Source: Candidatus Caenarcanales bacterium (lineage in GTDB: Bacteria > Cyanobacteriota > Vampirovibrionia > 2-02-FULL-35-15). From it: DNA of 40,717 bases. Location: the NCBI GenBank assembly GCA_020050435.1, contig JAGVKQ010000010.1, forward strand, positions 119,355 through 160,071. Direction: 5' to 3'. Below the pieces are notes generated by a model. That model made no database searches. It had not been told where the DNA came from and worked only from the letters and a program-made list of their open reading frames with translations. Positions within the stretch are counted from its first letter, which is position 1. Each line of letters opens with the position of its first letter. The translations under genes and the position numbers were made by a program. Of this stretch, positions 12,819-29,950 are shown in pieces.

Positions 12819-12936
12819 AGCAAACCTAACATCCTTAATGACTTCCGTCCAAGTGGGTAGTGTCCCTCCGCAATAACACCGCAATGGACGTGAAAGTAAA
12901 ATGAATTAGCCCCAGAAATGGGGCTTTTTTTATTTT
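12819..12936. repeat. Intergenic repeat A (left half L1, right half R1)
   Basis: The left part, 12819-12873, matches repeat B (18327-18381) over 55 bp with one difference. The right part, from the core CTCCGCAA (12866-12873) through the terminator, matches repeat C (about 22659-22720) nearly base for base. CGTCC (12846-12850) can pair with GGACG (12886-12890) across a 35-nt loop, as in repeat C. It lies directly 3' of the leftward AAA+ gene. Confidence 0.85.
12908..12935 (+). terminator. Intrinsic terminator in repeat A
   Basis: AGCCCC (12908-12913), loop AGAAAT, GGGGCT (12920-12925), then a seven-T run and more T. It works rightward and could end the transcript of the 261-aa membrane gene or an RNA from repeat A. 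Confidence 0.85.
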
Positions 12937-12964
12937 CTAATAAACCAAATCCGACACCGTGCCA

Positions 12965-15646
12965 TTAACTTGTTCTTTTTAGAGCAGTTATTATATTTTC
13001 AGTAGTTAACTGAGTCGGAGCATATTCTCTTATTCTTCTAGAAATTTCTGCAGCAGTAATCTCTTCTGCATGCTGAGCGATAGCGTCAAAATCTAAAGGA
13101 GTGGATATGGACTTAGCTTCATCTATATCTACTAATGTTGTTACTATGCTTGAAATGATTCTTACCAATCTAGGATTCTTTTGTTGAACGAATCGAGGCA
13201 TGCTGGATGATAATTCTGCTTTTATTGAATCAAAACTAATTACATGTTCTGGACGGTTCGATGCTATAGAAATTGCTCTGTCTATTGTTGCTGGAGTATA
13301 TAGACCTAGAAGCTCTCCAGCTTCAGTCATATTTATCTCTTCGACTAATCTTCCTGATTGTATTAAAGGTTGAAGGAAGAATTCTGCTAGTGCATCTGCT
13401 TGATGGTTTGTATATTTTCTATGAAATGAGAAGTCTACAAAGTCAATTCTTTTTTCCCTAAATGTAGCAGCACTAATATGTTTGCATAGTTCTAGTTTAG
13501 CTTTTGCAGAATTACCGTCCTTATCAATTGAATCTAAATCTAAATCAGAAGAACGAGGGGCATTAGTGGTCATAAGAATAGCTACTGTTGAGGATTGATT
13601 GACACCATTTCTAAGGTTTTGAATACGGGTAAGGAATAGACTGGTGAGGGCTTCTTGTTCTGGGGTAACTTCACCCTGCGAGTGTTCATCTACTCTTCTT
13701 GGTTTTAAGTATGCTTCTATTTCATCAAGGAGTAAAACACATGGTGATTGTGACTGAACCATGTCAAAATATGTGGCTACTGGAATATTCTGACCTTCAT
13801 GCTCAATATAAAAGTTCACTCCACTGCGAACTATTTTATCGGGGCTTAAAGTAAATAGAGGAAGTCCCATTTGATTAGCAACGATTGTAGCGAGTAAAGA
13901 TTTTCCAGTGCCCATAGGACCTGAAAGTAAGTATCCACTATCGTATGAATCACGTTTTTCATATAAGTTAGCTACTACTGTTTTTAATATGCGGTCTCTG
14001 TGTTCGAATAGATCTACATAACCACCATTAGTAAAACACCTAGTTAAAGAGTGATTTAGTGTTAATGCTTGTCCTAGTACGGAAGACTCATGAGGATTTA
14101 AAAAGAAGTCAAGGTTTCTGGCAGTTGCTGGAAATGAATCCACATCATGAATTAATAGCTTGGTTATGGTTGTTAAATATTCTCTAACAGCCGGGGATAA
14201 AAAAGTGACAAGTGGCAACTCCGCTCTTCCTGCAACTTTTACAGGTCTATTTAATTCTTGATTTAAATATCTAAGAAAATATAAACCCTTGTGCGAATTG
14301 TCTTGTGTAAGTTTTTCTCCGACTGTATTTGACTCAAGTTTTATAAGACCAAGGATTTCAATTATCCTTTCATTTAAGGATGCTTCATCTGGGAAATTAC
14401 TTGTACGATGAAAGTTGTTAAATAAACTTATGCTGTCTTTTTGAACTTGGTTAAATTGTGCAAATGCTAATTCCATTTCTCTACTAGGATAAGGCAAACT
14501 TCCTGCTCTAACAAAGTTCCCCCACCCGCAAAAATTTACACATTCTCTTTGATTTTTTTGATCTAGCTCTCTTTGTTGTTTTGCTTTTTCATTCCATAAA
14601 TGTCTTTCTATTCCAGTAGCTTTATCTAAAATCTCAAGTAATAAAGTACAACTAGCTTCTGAATATCTTTCTTTATCAGTTTGTCCTAAAGCTACTTCAT
14701 TAGTTAATGCATCTAAAAGACCTTTTCTAAATTGTTCAGACCTTGTTCTTTCACCTATGGGTACACTATCTATATGTGACTTTAAATATAAAGGATCATC
14801 GTCTCTAAATAGAATATGTAATAAGGTTTTATACATACCTACTCTATAAGCCCTACTTCTTTTATATGATGGAATACTACTGCCTTTAATTTTACCTGCT
14901 TCATCACCATTAGAAGTTACAGGGACTTTTTTATTTAGAATTAAAATCCTTCTTAGGCTATCTTGTGCTTGTTTGTTTAATGCTGGGAATTTTCCTTCAT
15001 GAGAATGTTCAAGAACACTTGCACACATATCATATGCTGTGCTGCATTCATACCAGCCTCTTTCTGCGGTAAGATCTACTACCTCCCCAAAAGCTTTATT
15101 TAACCTTGTTCTATCCCACATTGTGGGAAGATTGATTATTAGATAGGCTCTATCAGCAAGTAGCCTTGTTTTATTCCATATAGGGTTTTGATCTTGCCAG
15201 CCGTGAGTAACGGTAGAATCTAAGACTATCTTACTAGTTGATAATCTGTCATCTATGCTATATAGCTCTTCTAGTAAAGTAGCTTGTGCGGAAATAACAT
15301 TTTCACTATCATTGAAAGCTCCTCCACTTAGTTCTGTAGATTTTACAAGAGATAAAGAAAATATGGTCTCAACTTTACAGATTACTTCATGTTGGTTTTT
15401 TACTGTTATTTGAGAAGCATTATTAGAATCTATATCTTTAATTACTGCAGTTTTCAACATTCTAATAGCGGCACTTCTAATCTCTTCATCTGAATGAGAC
15501 AGATTTTGGATAGTTGAAGTATCTACTCCAGAAACAACGGATCCATTAACAAGCCCAGAGACTTTTTCACCTACAGCACCTACAGTCTTGGCTGTACCGA
15601 TTTTTATTAAGGTAGTTGCTATGGTTGAGATTGGATCAATAGACAT
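12965..15646 (-). CDS. Large AAA+ ATPase (893 aa), catalytically intact member of a local family
   Basis: 893 residues. About 560 residues of mostly helical, unrecognised sequence precede one AAA+ module. Walker A GPMGTGKS is at 576-583, Walker B VLLLDE at 637-642, sensor-1 Asn near 695 (MTTN), and a candidate arginine-finger region FREKRI follows. The C-terminus TQLTTENIITAL resembles the final helix of classical AAA proteins. The N-terminus (SIDPISTIATTLIKIGTAKT) is Ala/Thr/Val-rich, with no clear signal. Two nearby genes (15821-16702 and 22982-25378) are paralogues that lost the ATPase residues, and 22751-22829 is a remnant of another copy. Shared landmarks with the 798-aa paralogue include NLDFFLNP and ERHLWNE. 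An ATP-driven remodelling role is inferred; the substrate is unknown. Confidence 0.85.
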   Translation of the reverse strand: MSIDPISTIATTLIKIGTAKTVGAVGEKVSGLVNGSVVSGVDTSTIQNLSHSDEEIRSAAIRMLKTAVIKDIDSNNASQITVKNQHEVICKVETIFSLSLVKSTELSGGAFNDSENVISAQATLLEELYSIDDRLSTSKIVLDSTVTHGWQDQNPIWNKTRLLADRAYLIINLPTMWDRTRLNKAFGEVVDLTAERGWYECSTAYDMCASVLEHSHEGKFPALNKQAQDSLRRILILNKKVPVTSNGDEAGKIKGSSIPSYKRSRAYRVGMYKTLLHILFRDDDPLYLKSHIDSVPIGERTRSEQFRKGLLDALTNEVALGQTDKERYSEASCTLLLEILDKATGIERHLWNEKAKQQRELDQKNQRECVNFCGWGNFVRAGSLPYPSREMELAFAQFNQVQKDSISLFNNFHRTSNFPDEASLNERIIEILGLIKLESNTVGEKLTQDNSHKGLYFLRYLNQELNRPVKVAGRAELPLVTFLSPAVREYLTTITKLLIHDVDSFPATARNLDFFLNPHESSVLGQALTLNHSLTRCFTNGGYVDLFEHRDRILKTVVANLYEKRDSYDSGYLLSGPMGTGKSLLATIVANQMGLPLFTLSPDKIVRSGVNFYIEHEGQNIPVATYFDMVQSQSPCVLLLDEIEAYLKPRRVDEHSQGEVTPEQEALTSLFLTRIQNLRNGVNQSSTVAILMTTNAPRSSDLDLDSIDKDGNSAKAKLELCKHISAATFREKRIDFVDFSFHRKYTNHQADALAEFFLQPLIQSGRLVEEINMTEAGELLGLYTPATIDRAISIASNRPEHVISFDSIKAELSSSMPRFVQQKNPRLVRIISSIVTTLVDIDEAKSISTPLDFDAIAQHAEEITAAEISRRIREYAPTQLTTENIITALKRTS

Positions 15647-15653
15647 TATAAGA

Positions 15654-15681
15654 ATTATACAGAGTTAGGAAAAATAATCAA
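15654..15681 (-). promoter_or_regulatory. Promoter of the 893-aa AAA+ gene, leaderless
   Basis: Leftward TTGATT (15681-15676), 16-bp spacer, TATAAT (15659-15654). Only 7 bp separate the -10 box from the ATG at 15646, so transcription would begin at the start codon. No Shine-Dalgarno sequence could be transcribed from this promoter. Confidence 0.6.
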
Positions 15682-15820
15682 GAGGAGGATTATCAGTATC
15701 TTATCGTATAGATCAGATATAAAGCCTTTGATTAAATTAAGAGTCCTTAATTTACTTTTTATATTAGTAATGATATTATAAACAAACTATTTAACAATCT
15801 AATATTTAAGGAGTTTATAT

Positions 15821-16702
15821 ATGAGTTCAAGTATTCAAGCCATTAATCCTTTGGCTTCTTTTCCAAAGGCTAATCAATTAGTTTTAGATCATATTAACAA
15901 TCGAATTTTAAATGATTCAAGTAGTGATATAGGTCATGCAAGAAGGGAATCTGAAGGTGTTTTGATATCAGGTCCAAATCAAGCTGAGCTTAATTCTTAT
16001 GTTAATTGGGTTGCTAGTCAATTAACATTACCAATTTATGAGTTTAATCAAGAAAGCGTGTTAGATAATGATACAAATTTATTGTTGGCGCATGATGATA
16101 AAGAGCTTAGTATTTCAGAGGTTGTATCATTGCTTCAAGCAAGCGCTCCTTGTTTACTTTATTTAAATGGTGCCGAACAATTGTTACCTCCTCGAGAAAT
16201 AGATAAACATATTTATAGAATGAAGCCCACAACGAATAAAACGATAAATTTAGATGATGAAAAATTAAGTGCAGGTTTTAGAGGATTAATTAATGGAATT
16301 GGTACAAGTAAAGTAGCATTATTTGCTAGTACTAATATGCCAAAATATGTTAATCACTCGTCGATTGAAGATGATGGTAGCTCTTCGGAAGCTAACTACA
16401 ATCTCCACAGTCATTATGTGAGTTCAGGTGGTACAAGAATTGGTAGGATCAACCATAGTGTTTATTCATTTCATAAATTGCATGAGGAAAGCGTTTTTTC
16501 TAAAAGAAAAAAAGTTATTAACTCAGCTCTAATAATAGGATTGAGTATAGAAGATAAAAAAATTAGCGGAACTGTTGACTTGGAAGAATTAGAATTAAAA
16601 TCAACAAATTTGAGTGATAGAGAAGTGATGCAGATCTTGCAAAGAGTAGAAAACTTAACGCAGGAAAATATTATTGCTGCATTTGAAGGAGCAAAGAGTT
16701 AA
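15821..16702 (+). CDS. ATPase-dead short AAA+ paralogue (293 aa)
   Basis: 293 residues, with a good AAGGAG before the ATG. It corresponds to the AAA+ module of the 893-aa protein without its long N-terminal region. Walker A is replaced by GPNQAELN (51-58) and Walker B by LLYLNGAEQL, where N116 and G117 stand for the catalytic Asp-Glu. The stretch after Walker B, PPREIDKH (123-130), still matches KPRRVDEH of the active protein. The C-terminus ends LTQENIIAAFEGAKS. The clean frame and intact start argue for a maintained pseudo-ATPase rather than decay. It is divergent from the active AAA+ gene and separated by 174 bp, so they may act together, for example in a mixed ring; that is inference. Confidence 0.75.
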   Translation: MSSSIQAINPLASFPKANQLVLDHINNRILNDSSSDIGHARRESEGVLISGPNQAELNSYVNWVASQLTLPIYEFNQESVLDNDTNLLLAHDDKELSISEVVSLLQASAPCLLYLNGAEQLLPPREIDKHIYRMKPTTNKTINLDDEKLSAGFRGLINGIGTSKVALFASTNMPKYVNHSSIEDDGSSSEANYNLHSHYVSSGGTRIGRINHSVYSFHKLHEESVFSKRKKVINSALIIGLSIEDKKISGTVDLEELELKSTNLSDREVMQILQRVENLTQENIIAAFEGAKS

Positions 16703-16753
16703 GTTTGAGATTACGGTCCCTTTTTATTTCTTATCAAAATTCTATATTTATTG

Positions 16754-16830
16754 CACAAAACTTACGAAAAATGTAAGTTTTGTGTTAATCCTTCGAGATT
16801 TAGTGTATAATACTTACGTAAACTGTAAGT
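16754..16830 (+). promoter_or_regulatory. AbiEi operators and abiE promoter
   Basis: Two inverted repeats share the half-site ACTTAC/GTAAGT and both have 7-bp spacers. IR1 has perfect 12-bp arms (16754-16765 and 16773-16784); IR2 has 6-bp arms (16812-16817 and 16825-16830). Their centres are 52 bp apart, about five helical turns. A TATAAT at 16806-16811 abuts IR2. Two inverted repeats bound by AbiEi for negative autoregulation are known from the streptococcal AbiE system. Confidence 0.8.
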
Positions 16831-16833
16831 TCT

Positions 16834-17445
16834 ATGCAAAGCAAAAATAAAATAAATAAAGAAAAAAAGCTTATAGAATTAGCTATAAGTCAAGGTGGAT
16901 ACTTTACTGCTAAGCAAGCTCTTAAGTTTGGATATAGTTATAGAGCACAAAATTATTATGTAGAAACAAAGCAGTGGTTAAAAGAAGATAGGGCTCTTTA
17001 TAGGTTTAACTTCTTACCATTTTCCAAAGAAGATGAGCTTATAAAAGCATGTTTTTGGAGTAGAGATAAAAAAGATATCCCTCAGGCTGTAATTTCTCAC
17101 GAATCTGCTCTTTCTGTTCATGGAGTAGGGGAAGTAATATCAGACAAGGTAAATCTTACTGTCCCTAAGTCATTCAGGAAAAAACCACCTAAGAAATATT
17201 TAATTTATAAGGTTGATTTAACAAATAAAGAAATTGAGGAAAAAGATTTCTTTAGAGTTACCAGTGTAATAAGAACTGTTGCTGATATAGCAGAAAAAGT
17301 TGACCCTGAGCAATTAAAGAAAATAGTTGAAGATGCCTACAAAAAAGGGCTTTTAAGTCAGCATGAAATAGAATTATCTAATAGCAGTGTAGAAGTTAAA
17401 AGAAAACTTTTATCTGTTTTTGCACAAGTAAGAAGTAAAAGGTAA
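16834..17445 (+). CDS. abiEi: AbiEi-family antitoxin / autorepressor
   Basis: 203 residues. A winged-helix domain (about 10-57, ISQGGYFTAKQALKFGYS and RALYRF) is followed by the AbiEi antitoxin domain, with AVISHESALSVHGV at about 88-101 and a helical end. It is the antitoxin and transcriptional repressor of a type IV toxin-antitoxin pair. Its stop codon shares one base with the ATG of the next gene (TAATG at 17443-17447), so translation is coupled. The two inverted repeats at 16754-16830 are its likely operators. Confidence 0.9.
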   Translation: MQSKNKINKEKKLIELAISQGGYFTAKQALKFGYSYRAQNYYVETKQWLKEDRALYRFNFLPFSKEDELIKACFWSRDKKDIPQAVISHESALSVHGVGEVISDKVNLTVPKSFRKKPPKKYLIYKVDLTNKEIEEKDFFRVTSVIRTVADIAEKVDPEQLKKIVEDAYKKGLLSQHEIELSNSSVEVKRKLLSVFAQVRSKR

Positions 17446-18311
17446 TGAAGAATAATAAGTATAAAACCCCAGAAGATTTTAGAAAGGCTCTTGAAGAAAA
17501 AATTAGAAGGACTGCTGAGTCTGAGAATAAAACTGTTAATGACATAATGTATAAAGTTGCTTTTGATAGGTTTTTAGCTAGGATTTTTCATAATGGGAAT
17601 GAAAACTGGATTTTAAAGGGTGGGTATTCTTTAGAATTACGGTTTAAAGATATCAGTGGTATTTCAAGAACAACTACAGATATAGATTTTGCTCTTAGAG
17701 AATTGAAAAATATTACTGAAGAAGAACTCTGGGATTCTTTAAAAGAAATAGCAAAAAAAGATTTAAATGACTGGTTTAGTTTTGAAGTGAGTGAACCAAC
17801 AAAAGAGCTAGTCTTACCTACTTATGGGGGTTGGCGTTTTCTTGTTGTTTCAAAAATTGGACCAAGAGAATTTAACAGGTTTAATGTAGATGTTTCTATT
17901 GCTGAAGGCTTTGTTTCAAAGCCTATATGGGAAAAAGGAAGTGATATTTTAAGTTTTGCAGGTATTGAACCAGCTAAGATATTAATTATTTCTGCTGAAA
18001 AACAATTTGCAGAAAAGATACATGCTTATACAAACCCTCTAATAATTAACAATTCAAGAACCAGAGATTTAGTGGATTTAATTATTTACATAGACCAAGG
18101 ATTTAAAGATAAAGAGTTACTGAGGAAAGAAATAAGTTTAACTTTTAAGACTAGAAACACTCACGATGTTTCAAAAGTAATTTTAGAACCACCAAAAGAC
18201 TGGGAAAAGCCATACCAAGCCCTGGCTAATAAATGGGGTGCTTCTAAGACAAGTTTAAAAGAAGCCTTTGAATGTTTAAACGATTTTTGGAATACTTTGT
18301 ATAAAAGTTAA
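17445..18311 (+). CDS. abiEii: AbiEii-family nucleotidyltransferase toxin
   Basis: 288 residues. Motifs of the AbiEii/AbiGii family are present: KGGYSLELR (58-66), TTTDIDF with D79 and D81 (77-82), and the later EKIHAY and SRTRDLVDL stretches that hold the conserved Lys and Asp. It is a DNA-polymerase-beta-like nucleotidyltransferase; relatives inhibit growth and abort phage infection, and some modify tRNA acceptor ends. All expected catalytic residues appear intact. An intrinsic terminator follows at 18407-18434. Confidence 0.92.
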   Translation: MKNNKYKTPEDFRKALEEKIRRTAESENKTVNDIMYKVAFDRFLARIFHNGNENWILKGGYSLELRFKDISGISRTTTDIDFALRELKNITEEELWDSLKEIAKKDLNDWFSFEVSEPTKELVLPTYGGWRFLVVSKIGPREFNRFNVDVSIAEGFVSKPIWEKGSDILSFAGIEPAKILIISAEKQFAEKIHAYTNPLIINNSRTRDLVDLIIYIDQGFKDKELLRKEISLTFKTRNTHDVSKVILEPPKDWEKPYQALANKWGASKTSLKEAFECLNDFWNTLYKS

Positions 18312-18326
18312 TTACAAATACTCTTA

Positions 18327-18405
18327 AGCAAACCTAACATCCTTAATCACTTCCGTCCAAGTGGGTAGTGTCCCTCCGCAACCATGTTGAACGCAATCTA
18401 AATCT
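18327..18405. repeat. Intergenic repeat B (left half L1, right half R2)
   Basis: The left half 18327-18381 matches repeat A with one difference in 55 bp, up to and including core CTCCGCAA (18374-18381). The right half (about 18386-18406, GTTGAACGCAATCTAAATCT) matches repeat D (about 29930-29950) at 19 of 22 positions instead. It lies 3' of the leftward 812-aa gene and 3' of abiEii. Confidence 0.85.
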
Positions 18406-18406
18406 A

Positions 18407-18434
18407 AAGCCTCGGAGTGATTTGAGGCTTTTTT
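18407..18434 (+). terminator. Terminator of the abiE operon
   Basis: AAGCCTC (18407-18413) pairs with GAGGCTT (18424-18430), followed by a run of six T. The same GCCTCGGAG...TGAGGC hairpin recurs at 25418-25446 and 27671-27696. Confidence 0.85.
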
Positions 18435-18542
18435 GTTTAATTATGGTTGATTAATTTCTATCTGCCTAGAATGTTGTAGCAAATCCAATCCCTAGAAGTT
18501 TATTAAATTCACTTTAATCGGGAGACAACTCAAACAAAAGAA

Positions 18543-20981
18543 TCATGGCTCGATCCTGGTGTTAAGTGGTTTATCCCAGCTATCAAAGAATCCAGACCCT
18601 TTCCCCAAACCATTAAATAGAGTATTAAGAGTATCTAAATTTGGGCTAACAGTAGGAAGAGAACGGTTATGTAATGCTATACCTGTAATTCTTATCATTC
18701 CTGAAAGAAATTGAATATCTTCACTATGTTGAGCTAAATCTCCAGGTATTGCTTCTTGCCATAGGTATCTTAAGTCATCTAGCTTTTCTTTTGTTTCTGG
18801 ATCGTTTAAGCCTTTCATTACCAAGTCAAGCCAATCCGTAAGTTTATAACTAAAGACAGCAGTTTCATCACCACCATACTTATGTGTAATTTCATGTAGA
18901 TAAGCAGCCAGTCCTCTTTCAAAAGTAATAGAACCTAAAAAGGTTCTATCGAACCAAACATGCTGTCCTTGATATTCAGCTAAAGCATCTTTGTTAACTA
19001 ATCTTTCTTCACGGTCAAAAATGTAAACAGGTTTAGCTATGTCACTTTCTGAGACAGTAAATTGAGATTTTATAAATGCTTTTCTTAAAATGTTTGCGGC
19101 TTCTTTTAAAATATTTATTTGTTTAACTTCATTATCCGTAGGTTGAAGTGGTTTTTGTTCTGATAATTTTTTATAAACATCTTCAGCTTTTGGCATTCCC
19201 ATTGAATCAAAGCCAGTTGCATAAAAACTGAATCCTAACTTTTGAAGCTCAGCCAAGTATTCACGTGGAAACCCACCATGGTTTGGTGGAATAGTCAAAC
19301 ATTTATCTTCAAACTTAGTAACTATACCTCTTGTGCTTGCTTCCCTGATAAGTGAATGTAAAAGAGAAGAAGCTGGACCTGTTGTATTTAGGTCTGATTG
19401 TCTTCTATGATCAAACATAAATGATGTACTCATACCTAGTCCATGATCTCTAATTTGAGTGCCATCATAAAATGCTAAATTCCTGCTCCAAAATTCTTCA
19501 AGCAACTTTATGGATTTTATTAATTCTTCATCAGACATGCTCTCAATTATTGGACTAAGCATACTACCTTCAATAACTCCAGTTGAAATAGCAGTTCTAT
19601 CTCTATCTGGTTCCCAGTACCCAACTTTTTTATTTGTCCAAACTGATAACTGATGAAGTCCACCACCCCATCGTTTATTTCTATTATCATTAAAAGAACC
19701 TGATTCTATTTCATATCTTTGCCTTAAAGGGTAAGCATTTCCATAGGCATCCCTACCTAAATACTTAAATCCACCTATGTCATTTTCAAAAGTTGGATTA
19801 CTAAAATCAATATTCTGTGGGTGGTAGAATAAATCGACACCATTTATGATTTCATTTACTAGTCTGGCATCGGTAGTAGTTATTTCAACATAGTTTCCTG
19901 GTCTATCATCTGCAAGGTTTAATTTTCTAAAAAGACCTCTATTACCAGAAGCAAACTCACCAAGTGTATATTCCATCTTCCAGTTTCTCGATGAAAAAGC
20001 AATTTCTTTTGCATTATGATCTCTTAAAAACACTAAAGAAAGAATCTTAGCTCCTTCTCCAAATCCCCCAGCACTTTTATCATTGCCTTTTTTAGTGGTA
20101 GCTCCAGTTTTTTCAACATATTCAGGATGAAATTCTCCAAGCCCTTCTACTCTAATTACATATGGTTCACTTTTACTATTTCTTTGTACTCTTATTTTTA
20201 CTCCTTCTAAAGTTAAACCGTGTGAATCTAAAAAGTTTTGAAATAAGTCTCTTATACATTTGGTTCTGTCCCACTTTACACCGTAATCAGCCAAATAATC
20301 ACTTTCAAGCAATAGCCCAAGCTTATTTTTAATTAGAGTATGTTCTGGGTCTATCAGAGCTTCTTTTTGTTTAGTTGCTTCTATTCCTGTAGAATGAAGC
20401 TCAGGATCGATAGGAATTTCAAGTACTATTTCTCCAATTAGATCTTGGATTGAAGATTCTGTTGGTTTATCAAGTGGCTGTACTGTTTTTCCATTACCAT
20501 TGGATACTTTTTCAGGCAAAGGAATAAATTTTGTCTCTTTTCCTTTAATTCTATGTTTAGTATCTTCACCTTTATCTTCTGGTTTCCAGTCAGGTTGATT
20601 GTTTATTGATACCTGTTGTCTTAAAGAATCTAATCTTTGCTCATGAGCTAAAGGAACTTCTAATAATTGATTTAGTAAAGCATGTACCTGGATAGCTTTA
20701 GTAGGGTCAATGGTTTCTGAATGACTCACTGATTTTAATTCAATATCTAAAAATTTTATAAGCTGACTTAGTAATTGGTCTGATGCTTTTCCTGTTTCAG
20801 TAAGATAGGCTTTAAGTGCTTCAAATTTCTTTTGTGAACTCCCACTATCAAAACCAGTAGAAGCTACCTGATTTGGTGCAGCTTGTTCACAAACTTCTGT
20901 ATGATGACTTTCATCAGAAGATTGTGCACTGTCAGTTCTTACCAGTGCTCTTACTTGGATTAATATTTCACTTAGATTCAT
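18543..20981 (-). CDS. GHKL-type ATPase fused to an HExxH metallopeptidase-like domain (812 aa)
   Basis: 812 residues. The first 190 are polar, low-complexity and probably disordered. Residues about 215-420 look like a GHKL (Hsp90/histidine-kinase/MutL) ATP-binding fold: N-box RDLFQNFLDSH (244-254, N249), a G1-like VEGLG (278-282, with Glu where Asp is usual) and a clear G2 lid GGFGEGAK (305-312). Near the C-terminus HEITHKYGGDE (696-706) has the HExxH zinc site with a Glu 6 residues after the second His. Neither half matches a named protein I know. An ATP-gated protease is an attractive inference. No Shine-Dalgarno is visible. Repeat B lies just 3'. Confidence 0.7.
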   Translation of the reverse strand: MNLSEILIQVRALVRTDSAQSSDESHHTEVCEQAAPNQVASTGFDSGSSQKKFEALKAYLTETGKASDQLLSQLIKFLDIELKSVSHSETIDPTKAIQVHALLNQLLEVPLAHEQRLDSLRQQVSINNQPDWKPEDKGEDTKHRIKGKETKFIPLPEKVSNGNGKTVQPLDKPTESSIQDLIGEIVLEIPIDPELHSTGIEATKQKEALIDPEHTLIKNKLGLLLESDYLADYGVKWDRTKCIRDLFQNFLDSHGLTLEGVKIRVQRNSKSEPYVIRVEGLGEFHPEYVEKTGATTKKGNDKSAGGFGEGAKILSLVFLRDHNAKEIAFSSRNWKMEYTLGEFASGNRGLFRKLNLADDRPGNYVEITTTDARLVNEIINGVDLFYHPQNIDFSNPTFENDIGGFKYLGRDAYGNAYPLRQRYEIESGSFNDNRNKRWGGGLHQLSVWTNKKVGYWEPDRDRTAISTGVIEGSMLSPIIESMSDEELIKSIKLLEEFWSRNLAFYDGTQIRDHGLGMSTSFMFDHRRQSDLNTTGPASSLLHSLIREASTRGIVTKFEDKCLTIPPNHGGFPREYLAELQKLGFSFYATGFDSMGMPKAEDVYKKLSEQKPLQPTDNEVKQINILKEAANILRKAFIKSQFTVSESDIAKPVYIFDREERLVNKDALAEYQGQHVWFDRTFLGSITFERGLAAYLHEITHKYGGDETAVFSYKLTDWLDLVMKGLNDPETKEKLDDLRYLWQEAIPGDLAQHSEDIQFLSGMIRITGIALHNRSLPTVSPNLDTLNTLFNGLGKGSGFFDSWDKPLNTRIEP

Positions 20982-22482: not shown

Positions 22483-22507
22483 TGTTTACCTGCTAATGTG
22501 AATTAAT

Positions 22508-22525: not shown

Positions 22526-22566
22526 GTTAGAAATCTATTGTTTACATTGAGGAGATTAGATTAATT

Positions 22567-22599: not shown

Positions 22600-22604
22600 C
22601 TCAT

Positions 22605-22720: not shown

Positions 22721-22750
22721 TTCGAATAAATTAAACCTTACACAGTAGGA

Positions 22751-22829
22751 TTAACTAGTCTTTTGTAAGGCAGCTATTATATTTTCTTGGGTAAGTTCAA
22801 CTGGTGTTAGTTCTTCAATAGCCCTTAAT
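22751..22829 (-). pseudogene. 3' remnant of another AAA+ family gene
   Basis: Leftward TAA at 22753-22751, preceded in frame by about 25 codons reading LRAIEELTPVELTQENIIAA and ending LQKTS. This is close to the C-terminus of the 893-aa AAA+ protein (TQLTTENIITALKRTS). The DNA aligns with 12965-13040 at roughly three of four bases, and the match continues through the repeat and terminator on its 3' side. A stop codon interrupts the frame upstream. A fourth family member once stood here and was removed up to its last codons, apparently replaced by the rightward 798-aa paralogue. Confidence 0.75.
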
Positions 22830-22981
22830 TAAGTTAAGGAGGTTAAGGCTTTTGCAAAACAATGAATTATTGCAAGTATTTATGAGATTTTGCCTGTTGA
22901 AGTTAAAAGATAGAAAATGGTAATATCAGAATAGTTAGTATTTTAATAGAACATTATTTAATTGATCATTTATAAAACCAC

Positions 22982-25378
22982 ATGAGCAATATAAGTGCAC
23001 CCTCATTTTTTAGTAGATCCTCGACTTGGCTAAGGCAAGAGACTTTTCCAAGCAAGGCAAATAATAAAAATGCAAATACTGCTGCAAGATGGGTTGCAAA
23101 ACAAACAAAAGCAACAAATATTTCTATAGCATCAGGAATTGTTTGGCTTGGTACTTATCTGGCTGGATACTTTGCGAAAGATTCTGAGAATAAGGGTTTT
23201 AACTTTTTAATAAAAGGGACTAGATGGCTTTCTGGTATTTTAGGAATAGTAACACCGTTTGTAAATATCTCTACCAAGAAACCTTCGATTTTTGAATCCT
23301 CACAACTTCTTTTTAATGAAAATGACACAGACCTAAAAGAAAAGGTTGTCAAGGCAATTATAGAAGATCTAGAAATTCCTTTCCATGATTTGTACAAACA
23401 AAGTATCTTCCCATCTTATTCAAAAGAAAAAGCATACAGGGAGAAGATATATTCAACTGTCTTTGAACTTATAAAAGATCCAAAAGATCCTTTATGGTTA
23501 AACACCCCTCCAGAAAAAATTCCTCTTGGTCTAAAAGAAAGAATCCAAGAACTTAAAAGATCTCTTCTTTCAATATACAGAGCTGAGCATTCTATTTGTT
23601 ATAGTGAAGACTACAAATCTAACTACTCAAGAGAAGTTGACAACTTGCTTGAGAACATATTTATAAGTTGTAGTGAGCTTTCATATGCAGAAGCTATAAA
23701 ATACGATGTTGGTTCAACAAACGTACCAATGGAGTCAGTCTTTTGCGACCAACATGAGGTAAGTTTGTGGGAATCAGAAGATAAATCTTATAAGGAGAAT
23801 AAATATAGAGCGTTTGAAGAACTTTCAAGAGATGATAAAGATGATCGTTTTCATCTAAAGAAACTTCCTCAATATGCATCTGGTAATGGTGATTGCAAGA
23901 TTCACGAACTTTTAATAAAAGCTTATGAAGGGGAAAAAAGACTTATTGAGCTAAGTGATCCAAGAGGATCCAAGAGAGCATTAGCTTCTCTTGAGTCTAT
24001 CCTTGCTCGTGGAGTCACTATTGATCGTAATTTATGGGACGAGGAATATGTTTTCAAACAGTTTGAAGCTTGGGGTTCTAAAGTAGCAGAAGGTAATCTT
24101 GATTTAAGAAAGATCTTTAATGAATGTACAAAAATAGAAAGAGAAAATCTTGATAAATGTAAAAAGATTTTAGAAGCATCAGATATTGGATATGGTGACA
24201 TCAACAAGGATGTTTCGGAAATACTTGAAATGATTAACTCTAGTATTGAAAATCTAAATTGCAATCCAGCAGCTAATAATTTAGATGGCTCAGTTTGTAG
24301 GGCTTCATTTCTTATTTCATGTTTAAATGAGCTGCTTTCTAAAAAAGTACTAAATGGTGGTTTGGTAGCTATCATGCACTTAATTGATGAAAATAATACA
24401 GAAAGAATTGCAACTAATTTAAGAAAAATTGTTTGTAATATAACTATCTCTCCTGAAACAAAAAGAGATTTAAACTTCTTTCTAAACCCAAAGAAAAACT
24501 CACTCCCAGCACAAGCCGCGTATTTCCTTCAGAAGTTGTTACCTTCTCAGCTACCAAGTAATGATGAATTCAATGAGTCTAATCAAGTATTGCAAGTTGC
24601 TCATAGATGTTTATATGCCAATGATCAGGACATGGCTTCTAGGGTTGTCCTAATAGCAGGGGATCCAACAATAAGTAGAGATTTTAGAGTATATGCTTCA
24701 AGGAAACTCTGTGTACCAACTATAGAGCTCGAAGACTTTAATTTTGTGGTGAAAGACAATGATGTATGCATTAGGGATGGTTCAAGTGAAATGCCAATAA
24801 CTGAGTATTTTGAAAGTCTAACTAACAGAAGTCCAATAATAATTTCACTTAAGTATTTTGACTCTATAGTACAAAACAAAGCTACAGATGATCAACAAAT
24901 TAATATTATAAGATCTGCTCTCTGTGAACAACTCAAAAAAGTTAAACAATTAGGCAACTCTATTATGGTAATAGTTGAGATCGAAGGAAATGTAGATTAT
25001 AAAAAACTTAAAAATGCATCTTTTGATAATTATGGGTACAGTTCTTTAGTAAATAGTGCTCTAGAAGAATATTTATATCCTGAATTTATATCTCCTGAAA
25101 TCAATCCAATCTGTTTCCATGGACTGCAAATGAAGAAGATAGAAGAACACAAAGTTGAGGAGTTAAGAGAGAGAAGAAGTCATATAGAAGCATTGATTTA
25201 TTATGTATTAGAAGTGGAAAAGTCAAAAACAGTCACTTCCCCACTTAACTATATAGAAATTACTCTAGCTTCAGAAGGACTTAGCCTTTCCCAAGTCGGA
25301 AGAGCTATTAAAGACATAGCTTCAAAAGATTTAACTCAAGAAAATATTATTTCTGCATTTGAAGGAGCGAAGAGTTAA
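22982..25378 (+). CDS. ATPase-dead full-length AAA+ paralogue (798 aa)
   Basis: 798 residues, aligned end to end with the 893-aa protein by landmarks: DRNLWDEE for ERHLWNEK, RDLNFFLNPKKNSLPAQA for RNLDFFLNPHESSVLGQA, and the C-terminus LTQENIISAFEGAKS. The P-loop position reads GDPTISRD (560-567), with Arg for the catalytic Lys and Asp for Ser. The Walker B position ends SLKYF, with K624 and Y625 for Asp-Glu. Two hydrophobic stretches in the N-terminus (about 46-64 and 82-96) may be membrane segments, which the active paralogue lacks. The frame is open over 2.4 kb, so the protein is maintained. Its last codons and 3' flank match the 293-aa paralogue very closely. No clear ribosome-binding site. 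Confidence 0.75.
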   Translation: MSNISAPSFFSRSSTWLRQETFPSKANNKNANTAARWVAKQTKATNISIASGIVWLGTYLAGYFAKDSENKGFNFLIKGTRWLSGILGIVTPFVNISTKKPSIFESSQLLFNENDTDLKEKVVKAIIEDLEIPFHDLYKQSIFPSYSKEKAYREKIYSTVFELIKDPKDPLWLNTPPEKIPLGLKERIQELKRSLLSIYRAEHSICYSEDYKSNYSREVDNLLENIFISCSELSYAEAIKYDVGSTNVPMESVFCDQHEVSLWESEDKSYKENKYRAFEELSRDDKDDRFHLKKLPQYASGNGDCKIHELLIKAYEGEKRLIELSDPRGSKRALASLESILARGVTIDRNLWDEEYVFKQFEAWGSKVAEGNLDLRKIFNECTKIERENLDKCKKILEASDIGYGDINKDVSEILEMINSSIENLNCNPAANNLDGSVCRASFLISCLNELLSKKVLNGGLVAIMHLIDENNTERIATNLRKIVCNITISPETKRDLNFFLNPKKNSLPAQAAYFLQKLLPSQLPSNDEFNESNQVLQVAHRCLYANDQDMASRVVLIAGDPTISRDFRVYASRKLCVPTIELEDFNFVVKDNDVCIRDGSSEMPITEYFESLTNRSPIIISLKYFDSIVQNKATDDQQINIIRSALCEQLKKVKQLGNSIMVIVEIEGNVDYKKLKNASFDNYGYSSLVNSALEEYLYPEFISPEINPICFHGLQMKKIEEHKVEELRERRSHIEALIYYVLEVEKSKTVTSPLNYIEITLASEGLSLSQVGRAIKDIASKDLTQENIISAFEGAKS

Positions 25379-25417
25379 GTTTGAGATTACGGGTCCTTTT
25401 TATTGTGAATAAGATAG

Positions 25418-25446
25418 AAAGCCTCGGAGCAATCTGAGGCTTTTTT
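25418..25446 (+). terminator. Terminator of the 798-aa gene
   Basis: GCCTC (25421-25425) pairs with GAGGC (25436-25440), followed by six T. It is essentially identical to the hairpin at 27671-27696 and close to the abiE terminator. Confidence 0.85.
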
Positions 25447-25472
25447 GTATATTAATTTTTGAGAATAATACC

Positions 25473-27407
25473 CTATGCCTGTTTAAATTCTAATAGTTTT
25501 GGACCATCTTCAGCATTTACCTCTAAGTTTTCCAGGTTTTCACCTAAGCCAAATGGCTTAAATATTTCCAACCTTTGTTCTGGAGTTAAATCTCCTAAAT
25601 GACAATTTTCTCCCTGTAAAATATAAACAACTTGGCTCAATCCTAGTATGCTTTTTACATCTTGGTCAGTAATGACTGTATTAGGAAAATAGGTTTGAAC
25701 TTTATTTTTAAGAACTTGAGCTAAATATTCTTGTAAACCTGGATCTTGTTTTTCAGATCCAGTCGTGCGGAGCAGATCAGTTCCTCCTGATTCGAATATA
25801 TCAGTGCTTTGTGCTGTCCCTTCATCTATTATGGTATGAGCAAGTGCTGCTGCTGCGTGGATTGTTTTTCTTCTTTGCATATTACTATCTGCTGCATCTT
25901 TAGGTTTACTTACAACAGTTCTCCAAAACTGATGTTCTGTAGCTTTAATTTCTTTTGCAACAACGTCATCTACCCTATTATGTTTATCATCAGCTGCTGC
26001 TTGTCTCATCCTACTAACAGTTGTTGAATATTTTAGTGGAAGTGGCCCTGTGTGTCCTGGAGAGAGTTCTCCTCTATTGATAAGATATCTTTTTAAGTTT
26101 TCTCTAACAATAAGATTTTCTTCTTCTTCATTTTTGGCATTAAATACTCTACGTATAACACCTGAAGGCTCATCTGAACCTTTTATCTCAGCTACAACAT
26201 CATCTATAGGGGCATCTGTAATTGCTTTTTGAAGGGCTAGATATCTTTTCCCATTACCACCCCTTCTAACTTCATCTGCAATAGCAAGAAGTTTTGATTC
26301 ATATGCATCTAATGCTGGTCTTTCAGGAGCGCCTGAGCTTAAATATCCTTTCATTTTTTGTTGTACTATAGGTAGTAAAGGTTCGTCTGAAGAGCCTGTT
26401 TCGCATTCTCTTAGCATTTTCCAAAAACTCTTAGGAAGATGCATGAGTAAAAATTTTACTCTTTCAGCATTTGTAAAATCTACCTGTATATCTCCAGATC
26501 CAACTATTTCAAAAGCTTTTCCAATACCAATCAAGTGTTTTAATTGTCCATCTTGAATTCCTTTAAGAAGAGTGCTACATAAATCATCACTTAATTGGTT
26601 TTTAATATCTTGATCAGCTTCATTTATTATTTCCCTATAGTTCTCAGCAACATCCATACGTGCTTTCCCTTTAAACAAATCTCCTCCATATGTGGCAGTA
26701 AAAGTGTTAGCAAGTTGCTTTTTTTGAATTGGCAAAAGATCATCCCAAAACACCTGTAAAAAATCATTTGCTGCCCAAGTAGGTATAATGCCATTTGGTA
26801 GTCCATTTATTAAATATAAATGTAGGTTATCTCTTATAGCGGGCAAGTTACTTATATTAGTACTTTTATAATCTTGAATAAAAGGAATCCTTCTATTCGG
26901 ACCTATTTTGGAATGAGATAATGCTATGCCGATATCAGAAATATAATCTATACTCACAGGGTCAACAATAACTGCTCTTCCTCTAAGATACTCTTCATTC
27001 ATTTCATGGATTCCAATAGCAGAAAGTCTTTTCCCAAACCTTGTAACTTCGACCTCTCCTATATTAAATACAGCAGAATCTTCCTTCATATCTCTAACAA
27101 ACAGAACAAATCCAGCAGGTTGTAGATAGTATAGTTTGTATCTAGTTCCATTAATAATTATTTCATCATTTTGTCTAATAAATTTAAAAAATTCTATTGC
27201 TAATTCTTGTGGACTCTTTTGTGTTTCACCAGCTTCTATACTTAATCTTGTTCTAGTTGCAGCATCTATGAATGCTCCTGGTTGAACACCAGTACTTTTT
27301 TCAGAGTCTGATGGTGAATTAGCTGCTGAACCGATAGAAACAGTTTCTTTAGCCGAAAGCGTACCTGGCTGAGGTGTAGTAGGTTTTAATGGATCAAGAG
27401 GATTCAT
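25473..27407 (-). CDS. Unknown 644-aa protein with disordered N-terminus
   Basis: 644 residues, not recognised. Residues 1-60 are Pro/Ser/Thr-rich and probably unstructured (MNPLDPLKPTTPQPGTLSAK), without a classical signal peptide. The rest is soluble and mostly helical, with a possible beta domain at 85-190 (IIINGTRYKLYYLQPAGFVL). No catalytic motif stands out. An unstructured, uncharged N-terminus on a large soluble protein is typical of substrates of specialised secretion systems, but no such system is in this window. It is convergent with the 798-aa gene, about 95 bp apart. Confidence 0.7.
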   Translation of the reverse strand: MNPLDPLKPTTPQPGTLSAKETVSIGSAANSPSDSEKSTGVQPGAFIDAATRTRLSIEAGETQKSPQELAIEFFKFIRQNDEIIINGTRYKLYYLQPAGFVLFVRDMKEDSAVFNIGEVEVTRFGKRLSAIGIHEMNEEYLRGRAVIVDPVSIDYISDIGIALSHSKIGPNRRIPFIQDYKSTNISNLPAIRDNLHLYLINGLPNGIIPTWAANDFLQVFWDDLLPIQKKQLANTFTATYGGDLFKGKARMDVAENYREIINEADQDIKNQLSDDLCSTLLKGIQDGQLKHLIGIGKAFEIVGSGDIQVDFTNAERVKFLLMHLPKSFWKMLRECETGSSDEPLLPIVQQKMKGYLSSGAPERPALDAYESKLLAIADEVRRGGNGKRYLALQKAITDAPIDDVVAEIKGSDEPSGVIRRVFNAKNEEEENLIVRENLKRYLINRGELSPGHTGPLPLKYSTTVSRMRQAAADDKHNRVDDVVAKEIKATEHQFWRTVVSKPKDAADSNMQRRKTIHAAAALAHTIIDEGTAQSTDIFESGGTDLLRTTGSEKQDPGLQEYLAQVLKNKVQTYFPNTVITDQDVKSILGLSQVVYILQGENCHLGDLTPEQRLEIFKPFGLGENLENLEVNAEDGPKLLEFKQA

Positions 27408-27605
27408 AATGGTTTAAGTCTTGTTGTCTCTATAAAAAAATGTTTTTTGGTGCCTTTATGTTAATTGATTATCATCTTAAATTCAATGCAAATTCTAAAC
27501 AAAAAATTAAATAAGGAACGAATTTTTTACTTTTAAAAATTAAATTAACTTGTAAGACCTAAATAGTAGGTAAAAACTTATCGAAGTTTAAATTTTTTTA
27601 ATGTT

Positions 27606-27668
27606 CTTAACCTTATCTCGCAAGAATTAGCGGTCGTAAGCGGTGAACAAAATCAAACATTTTAAGAA
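27606..27668. repeat. Diverged repeat F before the terminator
   Basis: The left part (CTTAACCT, then CTCGCAAGAATT) recalls repeats E/E2 and the CTCCGCAA core. The right part (GGTGAACAAAATC, 27637-27650) recalls right half R2 of repeats B and D, and it runs into the same terminator hairpin as B. Similarity is weaker than among A-D. The 461 bp between 27407 and 27868 otherwise hold the orphan terminator and the fic operators; no gene is visible there. Confidence 0.4.
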
Positions 27669-27670
27669 AA

Positions 27671-27696
27671 GCCTCGGAGCAATCTGAGGCTTTTTT
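27671..27696 (+). terminator. Orphan rightward terminator
   Basis: GCCTC (27671-27675) pairs with GAGGC (27686-27690), followed by TTTTTT. The gene to the left runs the other way, so nothing coding ends here. Confidence 0.75.
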
Positions 27697-27787
27697 GTTT
27701 TTAAGGTGGAGTACCAAGATGGTTAAAACTTTGTCTATTCACAGCAGTAAAAAAGATTTGAAAAGAAATTGTAACGAATTTATACCT

Positions 27788-27863
27788 AGGACTTACAATA
27801 AAGCTTAGTCCTGGATATAATACTTTCCCAGGACTTACAATAAAGCTTAGTCCTGGATATAAA
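27788..27863 (+). promoter_or_regulatory. Tandem promoter/operator repeats of the fic gene
   Basis: Two direct copies of a 33-bp unit start 42 bp apart, four turns of DNA. Each has AGGACT and AGTCCT arms (27788-27793 with 27807-27812; 27830-27835 with 27849-27854, the latter extended to 8 bp by CC/GG). Each also contains a promoter: TTACAA, 17 bp, TATAAT (27793-27821) and TTACAA, 17 bp, TATAAA (27835-27863). The palindrome arms overlap the -35 boxes and spacers, so a bound dimer would block both promoters. The Fic protein's own C-terminal helix-turn-helix is a candidate regulator. Confidence 0.75.
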
Positions 27864-27883
27864 AAGGATTGTCAGGTAGATTT

Positions 27884-29017
27884 ATGGGTAAAATTGGTAC
27901 TCAAGGACAAAATGGTAGTTCATTTATCCCAAGGTCATTTCCACCAAATGAGTTAATAAAATGGAATAATAATCTTATATCTTTACTTTCAAAAGCTGAC
28001 ATGGCTATAGGAAAACTTAATGCAATTGACCAGCTAGTGCCTGATGTTGATTACTTTATCTTCATGTATATAAGAAAGGAAGCTGCTTTATCAAGTCAGA
28101 TAGAAGGAACACAGGCTACTCTTCTTGACCTTGTAAAAGCAGAAGCAAAATTAGAAAATGAAAAACCACCTTCTGATTTAGACGAAATCATAAACTATAT
28201 TAAAGCAATGAATTATGGAATAAAAAAAATGGAAGAATTACCACTTTCACTAAGACTAATAAAAGAAGTACATAAAGAGCTACTAAAAGGGGTAAGAGGA
28301 GAAAATAGATATCCTGGAGAATTTAGGAGAATCCAAAATTGGATAGGAGGTAGAACTATTGAAACAGCAGCTTTTATACCACCTAAAGTACCTGAAATGC
28401 AAAAAGCACTAAATGATCTAGAAAGATTTATGCATGAAGAAAAAGAATCGCTTCCTCCACTAATAAAAACAGCACTAATCCATGCACAGTTTGAAACAAT
28501 ACATCCATTCTTAGATGGTAATGGAAGGACAGGAAGGCTTTTAATTACTTTTTACTTATATAAAGAAGGGATTCTGTCCAGACCACTGCTATATCTATCA
28601 GACTACTTTAATAGATATAGAAATCATTACTATGAGAAGTTGAACAGTTATAGATTTGGTATGGGTGTTGAAGAATGGTTAAAGTTTTTTCTAGATGGGG
28701 TTAGGGTGGTTGCAGAAGAAGCGACAGAAACAGCTATCAAGATTACAAAACTGAAAGAAAAAGATACGGAAAAAGTTTCAGGTTTTGGTAAAAATGCAGA
28801 GAAGGCATTGAAGTTATTAAATAAGCTTTATTCTCTACCTATCGTTGACTCCAAACTAATTTCTAAAATAACTGGAATCACATCCAGAACAAATACTAAT
28901 AGCTTAATTGAAAAATTCATAAAAGCAGGGATTTTAAGAGAAATTACAGGGAAGGAAAGAAATAAGAGATATATTTATAGTGAGTATATTAAACAGTTTA
29001 GCAAAGAGAAAATATAA
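27884..29017 (+). CDS. Class II Fic-domain AMP-transferase with winged-helix C-terminus
   Basis: 377 residues from ATG 27884 (AGG 7 bp upstream). A TTG at 27869 would add five residues but lies right behind the second -10 box. The Fic motif HPFLDGNGRTGR (207-218) is complete. The inhibitory helix motif SSQIEG (70-75, S/TxxxEG) lies N-terminal, which defines class II, where the Glu blocks productive ATP binding until relieved. A C-terminal winged helix (about 315-365, SKITGITSRTNTNSLIEKFI) may bind DNA. Family members transfer AMP from ATP to a protein hydroxyl; targets vary. Tandem palindromes upstream suggest autoregulation. Confidence 0.92.
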   Translation: MGKIGTQGQNGSSFIPRSFPPNELIKWNNNLISLLSKADMAIGKLNAIDQLVPDVDYFIFMYIRKEAALSSQIEGTQATLLDLVKAEAKLENEKPPSDLDEIINYIKAMNYGIKKMEELPLSLRLIKEVHKELLKGVRGENRYPGEFRRIQNWIGGRTIETAAFIPPKVPEMQKALNDLERFMHEEKESLPPLIKTALIHAQFETIHPFLDGNGRTGRLLITFYLYKEGILSRPLLYLSDYFNRYRNHYYEKLNSYRFGMGVEEWLKFFLDGVRVVAEEATETAIKITKLKEKDTEKVSGFGKNAEKALKLLNKLYSLPIVDSKLISKITGITSRTNTNSLIEKFIKAGILREITGKERNKRYIYSEYIKQFSKEKI

Positions 29018-29028
29018 AATGTTTCCGT

Positions 29029-29160
29029 CCCCATTCGGGGTTTAGATGATTTGAATCCATCATCACGGTGGATTACTCTTTCATCAGGTTCAAGTTTCAA
29101 GGAAAACAGTTAGGTCGTTCCTTGTCCACCGAAGACCGTATGCGTAGGTGGAAAATCCAC
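29029..29160. ncRNA. Candidate structured RNA or multi-hairpin element
   Basis: In 132 bp between fic and the next convergent gene lie CCCC-ATTC-GGGG (29029-29040), GATGAT/ATCATC (29045-29050, 29059-29064), an outer stem GGTGGA/TCCACC (29067-29072, 29125-29130) enclosing CAAGGAA/TTCCTTG (29098-29104, 29118-29124), and GTGGA-AAA-TCCAC (29148-29160). Base composition is clearly more GC-rich than its surroundings. A T-rich stretch follows at 29168-29178. Strand is not determined and no family is recognised. Confidence 0.4.
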
Positions 29161-29190
29161 TCTCTATAATTTCTTTTTCCATAAGGTTAA

Positions 29191-29787
29191 TTATAATCCT
29201 AATTCAAAAGGTACATTTTCAAAATTGCACATTAAAACAAGCTGTCCATTATTAGAAATCAAAATAGACGAGCCTGTTTCCTTGTTAATTGTTTCTTCTC
29301 TTAGAGTTTTTGGAAAAACAATTTTACTTTTTCCTGTAATTCTATTATCTTTAAATTTCTTGATTTTATTTATACCAGTTCCCACAATAGTTCCATCTTC
29401 ATTTTCATTAGTTATTGTATAAGCGGCATCTTTTGTTTTGTCAGTTACATTTAAATTAAGCATAAAATTCTCAACTGTGAAAGGAAGTATCATGCCATCT
29501 GTTGGTTTCGTAATGGTTCTACTTCCTTCTATTAACCCGTCAATGTTTGCTCGTGGAGAGTCAACAGCGAAACTAAGCTTAATATCTAGTAGCATTGTTT
29601 CAAGATTATTTTTAATACTAATATCTGTAGAAGTAATTTTTCTTATTGGTATATTGCCCTTAAAAACACAGGTGCACTTTTTTTCAGGTGAACTCAAACC
29701 GCTTTCTGTAGTCTGTGCATAAAGACAATTATTGAAAGTAAGAATTGTACAAATTATGAACAAAATTATTTTTACTTGAAATCTCAT
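29191..29787 (-). CDS. Exported protein of unknown function
   Basis: 198 residues from ATG 29787; a GTG at 29820 would add 11 residues (MNYRSWVYIYS) and cannot be excluded. The shorter start gives a textbook signal peptide, MRFQVKIILFIICTILTF followed by a cut near YAQ. The mature protein starts with a Cys pair (KKCTCVF) and is beta-rich (LDIKLSFAVDSPRANIDGLI; GSSILISNNGQLVLMC). No enzyme motif. Probably a periplasmic or surface protein; not recognised. Repeat D lies upstream of it. Confidence 0.65.
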   Translation of the reverse strand: MRFQVKIILFIICTILTFNNCLYAQTTESGLSSPEKKCTCVFKGNIPIRKITSTDISIKNNLETMLLDIKLSFAVDSPRANIDGLIEGSRTITKPTDGMILPFTVENFMLNLNVTDKTKDAAYTITNENEDGTIVGTGINKIKKFKDNRITGKSKIVFPKTLREETINKETGSSILISNNGQLVLMCNFENVPFELGL

Positions 29788-29847
29788 ACTATAAATATAT
29801 ACCCAAGATCGGTAATTCACTTATTCTTCTTAGTAAAAGCTTAACTA

Positions 29848-29950
29848 GCCACTCTATTGTCTCTTATAGTATGCGTCCAGGTCTCCTAAAGGATAGTGCT
29901 TCGCCTAAAATGTCGTCCTCTGCAAGTTCGTTGAACGTAACCAAAATCTA
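29848..29950. repeat. Intergenic repeat D (left half L2, right half R2)
   Basis: The left half matches repeat C (TATAGTATGCGTCCAGG identical at 29866-29882). The core is CTCTGCAA (29918-29925), one base different from the others. The right half (GTTGAACGTAACCAAAATCT) matches repeat B. An extra 20-25 bp not found in C sits between the left half and the core. It ends a few bases before the stop of the leftward 745-aa gene. Confidence 0.8.

What the first reader, a model, noticed from the sequence alone, without database searches (positions are those of the whole stretch)
12819..29950. Four intergenic repeats show all four combinations of two left and two right halves around a CTCCGCAA core
Repeats A (12819-12936), B (18327-18405), C (22605-22720) and D (29848-29950) share the core CTCCGCAA (CTCTGCAA in D). 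Left of the core, A and B are nearly identical (55 bp, one difference), while C and D share a different sequence. Right of the core, A matches C, and B matches D. So A=L1R1, B=L1R2, C=L2R1, D=L2R2. All four combinations in 17 kb are hard to get by simple duplication and point to exchange at or near the core. The right half lies next to the 3' end of a leftward gene or gene remnant each time, as in a cassette array. The mechanism (site-specific or homologous recombination) is inference, and no intact recombinase is visible nearby.
Basis: seen in the sequence. Interest (0 to 1): 0.78.

Follow-up and report, generated by a model that had tools for sequence, protein, structure and literature searches.

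The report
Tandem att sites of tRNA-fMet islands
The four repeats are scars of site-specific DNA insertion at the end of the initiator-tRNA gene, probably made by a large serine recombinase whose gene lies just outside the window, and they mark the joints of a tandem array of mobile gene modules, a known kind of arrangement found here in uncultured relatives of cyanobacteria.

Summary
Four same-orientation repeats (A-D) combine two left and two right arms around CTCCGCAA; the B/D right-arm match is the weakest. The core is the 3' end (positions 66-73) of the initiator tRNA gene. That gene lies 31 kb left of A, outside the window, in the same orientation. An intact large serine recombinase (LSR, 584 aa) lies directly against it. 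Relatives of this LSR in other Melainabacteria/Gastranaerophilales genomes also sit against tRNA-Met or its 3' fragment. In the same family, seven other genomes carry statistically supported sites, clustered at one locus in most, with many left/right pairings. Homologous modules in different genera end at the core: a 1.04-kb dinD/BRO cassette is 82% identical from core to core in two genera with different neighbours, and the AbiE pair stops at the core. So the pairings follow from tandem insertion of modules that each bring their own two arms, rather than from shuffling among repeats. Closest precedents are the ssrA islands of Dehalococcoides and SCC. The enzyme's role and present activity are inferred, not shown. 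One oddity remains: B carries the tRNA-flank arm, yet C and D lie beyond it.

The parts
12819..12936 (+). Site A = L1 arm + core CTCCGCAA + R1 arm + intrinsic terminator; attP-like (P.P') joint
18327..18436 (+). Site B = L1 arm + core + R2 arm (CCATGTTGAACG..., resembles the native tRNA-fMet 3' flank including CCA) + terminator; P.B'-type joint
   Evidence: R2 compared with the flanks in G008/G009 and site c of G003
22605..22721 (+). Site C = L2 arm + core + R1 arm + terminator; attP-like joint
29848..29980 (+). Site D = L2 arm with ~26-bp insertion + core variant CTCTGCAA + R2-like arm; probably degenerate P.B' joint
12866..12873 (+). Core CTCCGCAA of site A (= tRNA-fMet positions 66-73); cores of B, C and D at 18374-18381, 22651-22658 and 29918-29925
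12937..18326 (.). Module A-B: AAA+ ATPase (12965-15646 -), small AAA paralogue (15821-16702 +), AbiEi/AbiEii pair (16834-18311 +); AbiE homology with G003 runs to the core of B
18437..22604 (.). Module B-C: three unassigned leftward ORFs (812, 140, 189 aa)
22706..22840 (-). Remnant of the AAA+ gene 3' end that travels with R1 at site C (repeat D8, 74% identical to 12920-13000)
22722..29847 (.). Module C-D: AAA remnant, 798-aa paralogue (22982-25378 +), 644-aa ORF, Fic protein (27869-29017 +), 209-aa ORF

Best explanation
A-D are attachment (att) sites left by repeated site-specific integration at the 3' end of the initiator tRNA (tRNA-fMet) gene. An LSR distantly related to CcrB and XisF, encoded directly against the tRNA gene at G000:C8 (L052:1295-3049, outside the window), probably cuts within CTCCGCAA. 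Incoming modules carry a P arm and a P' arm and are inserted in the same orientation downstream of the tRNA. Each joint between tandem modules therefore shows the left arm of one module and the right arm of the next, either P' (R1) or a tRNA-flank-like B' arm (R2). The crossover leaves the tRNA intact to its discriminator base and moves the encoded CCA away. Most modules lack a recombinase and would rely on one supplied in trans. Shown here: identity of the core, one locus per genome in most members, shared orientation, breakpoints at the core, LSR linkage to tRNA-Met in two bacterial families. Inferred: that the LSR is the enzyme, the exact crossover dinucleotide, circular intermediates, and present activity.
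For: (1) The core is the 3' end of tRNA-fMet: the repeat profile itself picks up tRNA 3' ends, and ARAGORN calls tRNA-Met(CAT) at L052:1239-1315. (2) The LSR lies next to it with PF00239, PF07508 and PF13408 all above cut-off. (3) LSR homologues in another family lie against tRNA-Met in L090, L091, L103, L105, L106, L110 (some of these are the same genomes seen through two tools) or against its 3' fragment in L092/L100/L107 and L104; the G186 island has a distal 25-bp copy of the tRNA end and flank 10.9 kb away. (4) An LSR C-terminal remnant (75% identical) abuts an att site in G005, with right-arm homology to the tRNA-LSR joint of G000. (5) In family f1 the sites cluster in one orientation; in G007, G002 and G009 they lie downstream of tRNA-fMet. 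(6) Breakpoints: dinD cassette core to core; AbiE and A/B stop at the core. (7) The motif TTGRACGNAA lies 17 bp from the centre in L1/L2 arms (except D, displaced by its insertion) and 11 bp in the tRNA arm and R2/R3 arms, close to the 16-24 versus 11-19 bp zinc-domain positions of attP and attB in PMC3783163.
Against: No excision, circle or empty/occupied pair was observed; these are draft genomes. Most array-bearing genomes lack a detectable homologue of the LSR. The P-arm shift is 6 rather than 5 bp, R1 carries its best motif match at 22 bp in several copies, and L3 arms lack a good match. Sites C and D lie beyond B although B carries the tRNA-flank arm. The right arm at the G000 tRNA (R3) looks B'-like rather than P'-like. 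The SppA gene next to the distal G003 site is not next to the array in G000, so the distal chromosomal junction is unresolved.
Confidence: 0.86

Rival explanations
1. The sites are att sites at tRNA-fMet, but the acting enzyme is a tyrosine integrase, as for most tRNA islands, and the LSR is a passenger.
For: tRNA genes are the usual target of tyrosine integrases (PMC4383910 abstract); all 11 family genomes encode PF00589 proteins.
Against: The tyrosine recombinase genes whose surroundings were fetched lie by other tRNAs (Arg, Pro, Asp, Val, Thr/Tyr) or none, not tRNA-fMet. LSR homologues adjoin tRNA-Met in a second family. Shared identity is only 8 bp with flanking inverted motifs, which fits LSR sites.
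Confidence: 0.08
2. The combinations arose by homologous recombination or gene conversion between repeats, or by ordinary segmental duplication; the repeats are merely terminator-bearing 3' flanks.
For: R1 travels with the AAA gene 3' end at A and C; A, B and C end in strong hairpins plus T-runs and D in a weaker one.
Against: Cross-genus homology stops at the core at both ends of the dinD cassette. The same right arms are joined to a tRNA gene in other genomes. The core equals a tRNA 3' end.
Confidence: 0.04
3. The array is an integron-type attC cassette array.
For: Tandem, same-orientation, modules down to one gene, many with defence-type genes.
Against: No attC architecture was recognised by eye (no consistent R''/R' pairing), no linked IntI-like gene was found, the core is a tRNA end, and the linked recombinase is an LSR.
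Confidence: 0.02

Closest known systems
ssrA-specific genomic islands of Dehalococcoides (DsiB, CcrB-like LSR; PMC3146451)
   Same: LSR gene on the reverse strand beside the RNA gene, tandem islands in one region downstream of it, bounded by short direct repeats of the RNA 3' end, about half of the islands without an integration module
   Different: Target is tmRNA with a 20-bp repeat and the inferred insertion point in the T-loop; here tRNA-fMet with an 8-bp core at the extreme 3' end, no small partner serine recombinase (DsiA-like) noticed beside the LSR, and modules as small as 1.04 kb
SCC/ECC cassette chromosomes (CcrAB; PMC6222049)
   Same: LSRs, insertion at the 3' end of a conserved gene, extra att sites in half of the ECC elements, inverted motifs in attR and circle sites; the NCBIfam CcrB model gives a weak hit to this LSR
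   Different: rlmH target, paired CcrA/CcrB, TATCATAA core; the LSR here is far below the CcrB cut-off (25.5 against 900 bits)
Phage serine integrases such as A118/LI integrase (PMC3556126, PMC3783163)
   Same: Three-domain LSR; motif nearer the centre in attB-type arms than in attP-type arms
   Different: tRNA target, tandem recombinase-free modules; no phage structural genes were noticed in the array, although this was not searched for systematically
CIME accretion at tyrosine-integrase islands (ICE/IME literature; PMC5704250)
   Same: Integrase-less modules retaining att sites, tandem accretion (one search lists the papers; the concept is as cited in PMC3146451)
   Different: Serine rather than tyrosine recombinase; no conjugation genes were noticed

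Membership tests
tRNA-targeting islands with large serine recombinase | att core identical to the 3' end of a tRNA gene, same orientation, downstream | tested here: met
tRNA-targeting islands with large serine recombinase | Linked LSR with resolvase, recombinase and zinc-ribbon domains | tested here: met
   R23 V24 S25 (RVS, the usual catalytic-serine motif) invariant in the alignment
tRNA-targeting islands with large serine recombinase | Module boundaries coincide with the core | tested here: met
tRNA-targeting islands with large serine recombinase | attP/attB zinc-domain motif shift of 5 bp | tested here: inconclusive
   17 versus 11 bp on left arms; R1 arms have motif matches at 16 and 22 bp
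tRNA-targeting islands with large serine recombinase | Recombination activity, circular intermediate, directionality factor | not testable with these tools
   draft assemblies only, no reads
SCC (CcrAB) elements | ccrAB pair and rlmH target | tested here: not met
   target is tRNA-fMet; LSR below the CcrB curated cut-off
Dehalococcoides ssrA islands | tmRNA (ssrA) target with 20-bp direct repeat | tested here: not met
   core is tRNA-fMet positions 66-73, 8 bp
Integron cassette array | attC sites and IntI tyrosine integrase | tested here: not met
   no attC architecture recognised by eye, no linked tyrosine integrase
Rfam structured RNA | match to a curated family | tested here: not met
   0 matches in the window

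The most novel reading that the evidence does not exclude
A serine-recombinase counterpart of the integron: a resident LSR beside a regenerated attB at tRNA-fMet (tRNA.R3 carries B-type motifs at 11 bp on both sides) that captures small one- or two-gene cassettes (dinD 1.04 kb, AbiE about 1.7 kb) supplied with their own P/P' arms, using them as interchangeable defence and metal-resistance modules across genera. In G005 a P-type left arm is joined to the R3 arm of an LSR remnant, as if cassettes had entered between tRNA and LSR.
Probability: 0.2. Interest if true: 0.7.

Novelty: new member of a known kind. Interest (0 to 1): 0.45.

Why it matters
It shows where and how this poorly known lineage (uncultured Melainabacteria/Gastranaerophilales relatives) gathers accessory genes: at the initiator tRNA gene, probably by a serine recombinase, in modules that include AbiE, restriction-modification, SIR2, Fic and heavy-metal genes. 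It supplies a tRNA-targeting LSR family with natural attB/attP arm variants to test, and may explain why some assemblies break at these sites (one G003 contig ends at the tRNA 3' end).

Tried and rejected
Rfam on the window: no match. A terminator-ended small RNA: single-copy folds of A and C are better than shuffles, B is only slightly better and D is not, on the + strand, so a shared RNA fold is not supported. Integron attC sites: considered by eye for RYYYAAC/GTTRRRY boxes and dropped for lack of consistent pairing. Tyrosine integrases as the enzyme: the fetched loci lie by other tRNAs or none. Locating the chromosomal end with SppA: synteny not conserved. A third dinD copy in G003 (88% identical) has no core within its 1.5-kb flanks. 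Viral contigs: one distant LSR homologue only.

Full report
Observation. A and B share 54 of 55 bases on the left, and their homology stops at the last base of the core. A and C align at 89% over 91 bases, right arm included; C and D left arms at 89% over 35 bases. The B/D right match is weaker (35 bp, 77%). D has about 26 bp inserted and a C-to-T change in the core. Profile E-values run from 6e-25 to 3e-5. An ungapped left-arm weight matrix finds A, B and C and nothing else above 8 bits in about 80 kb of this contig; the best of 20 shuffles reached 10.5, against 36-50 for A-C. L1 and L2 are diverged forms of one arm.

What the core is. A sequence profile of the repeats (R1, built without structure) was searched in 146 genomes. 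Hits below E = 1e-3 occur in G000 and seven relatives of the same family (G002, G003, G004, G005, G007, G009, G010); G008 has only a weak hit, and weak hits elsewhere look like chance. Three hits are the 3' end of a tRNA gene...GGTTCAAATCCACC-CTCCGCAA. ARAGORN calls tRNA-Met(CAT) at L052:1239-1315, G000:C8:101139-101215. From its sequence it is the initiator: a C1xA72 mismatch and GGG:CCC in the anticodon stem (my reading). CTCCGCAA is positions 66-73. The tRNA lies 31 kb left of A, in the same orientation, outside the window. tRNA-fMet also lies upstream of the sites, same orientation, in G007, G002 and G009. The contig G003:C7 ends one base past the tRNA core.

The enzyme. Directly against the tRNA, on the other strand, is a 584-aa protein (L052:1295-3049) whose last codons overlap the tRNA 3' end. 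It carries resolvase, recombinase and zinc-ribbon Pfam domains, all above cut-off. Its homologues at 30-37% identity occur in Melainabacteria/Gastranaerophilales genomes. Several sit against an intact tRNA-Met (L090, L091, L103, L105, L106, L110) or a 3' fragment of it (L100/L107, L104). The L-numbers from the two tools partly overlap: contig lengths and ranges indicate that L105 is G186, L107 is G081, L109 is G125 and L110 is G153, so they are not all independent. In G186 a second 25-bp copy of the tRNA end and flank lies 10.9 kb away and marks the far end of an island. In G005 an LSR C-terminal remnant, 75% identical, abuts an att site, and homology with the G000 tRNA-LSR joint starts near the core. 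The tyrosine recombinase loci that were fetched lie by other tRNAs or none.

Why four combinations. The left/right pairings seen in the family are broad. L1 pairs with R1 (A, G003b) and R2 (B). L2 pairs with R1 (C, G003a, G002a), R2-like (D), R3 (G005) and others. A third arm, L3, pairs with R1 (G007a), R2 (G003c) and others. The tRNA itself is followed by R1 (G004), R2 (G008, G009), R3 (G000, G001) or others. Breakpoints fall on the core. The dinD/BRO cassette of G007 and G002 is 82% identical over 1.04 kb, beginning 7 bp before one core and ending 3 bp after the other, with unrelated neighbours. The AbiE pair (84%) stops at the core in G000 and G003. A hydrogenase/NADH-dehydrogenase-like block with an ArsR gene follows the tRNA in G007 and another att site in G004, and an AAA gene follows R1 at A, as a remnant at C, and at the tRNA of G004. 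Thus each module brings its own right and left arm, and a joint shows the left arm of one and the right arm of the next. Two common left arms and two common right arms give four combinations without further exchange.

Arms and mechanism. The motif TTGRACGNAA starts 17 bp from the centre in L1 and L2 arms (not in D, where the insertion displaces it), 11 bp in the tRNA left arm (the T-loop) and 11 bp in R2 and R3 right arms. Serine integrases read the zinc-domain motif at bp 16-24 in attP and 11-19 in attB (PMC3783163). The fit is good for attB-type arms and off by one for P arms; R1 has a poor match at 16 and a good one at 22, and L3 has none, so I count this as suggestive. On this reading A and C are P.P' joints and B and D are P.B' joints. 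R2 of B contains CCA and resembles the tRNA flank in G008/G009 (CCATGTTGA...).

What stays open. C and D lie beyond B although B carries the flank-type arm. The distal chromosomal junction was not found. Most array genomes have no detectable homologue of this LSR, so their arrays may be fossils or depend on recombinases from newcomers. No reads were available to see excision.

Comparison. The Dehalococcoides ssrA islands (PMC3146451) are nearly the same in layout: CcrB-like LSR, tandem islands, short repeats of an RNA 3' end, about half without an integrase. SCC/ECC (PMC6222049) is the other close relative. I therefore file this as a new member of a known kind. The small core-bounded cassettes leave open an integron-like reading, at low probability. 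I did not find a report of such arrays at tRNA-fMet in the library, but the library is incomplete.

Noticed in passing
L080 (G006:C30) and L081/L083 (G001:C25): Group I introns (RF00028) split the initiator tRNA gene in two relatives; G004 also has the gene in two pieces, on two contigs.
   Followed up: partly
L090-L092 LSR C-termini: The LSRs of the second family end in GAGFEPTTFGL, a tail read from the antisense strand of the tRNA gene; the G000 LSR likewise ends over the tRNA.
   Followed up: no
L053:9923-9947 (G000:C14:19921-19946): An orphan 26-bp piece of the L1 arm forms the end of an unrelated ORF on another contig.
   Followed up: no
window 27785-27862: Two 36-bp direct repeats (97%) just upstream of the Fic gene.
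   Followed up: no
window 18406, 25418, 27668: The same terminator hairpin (AAAGCCTCGGAG...GAGGCTTTTTTG) occurs at three places in the array, only one of them at an att site.
   Followed up: no
window 21850, 22566, 27604: Three copies of a 23-bp motif (TCCTTAACCTAGCGTCGCAAAAA), one just left of site C.
   Followed up: no
window 12965-15646, 15821-16702, 22982-25378; L049:247-2934: A family of large AAA+ paralogues, the first with weak similarity to the anti-phage ATPase IetA.
   Followed up: partly
window 38837-39070: A 9-bp tandem repeat array inside a 934-aa serine-rich ORF.
   Followed up: no
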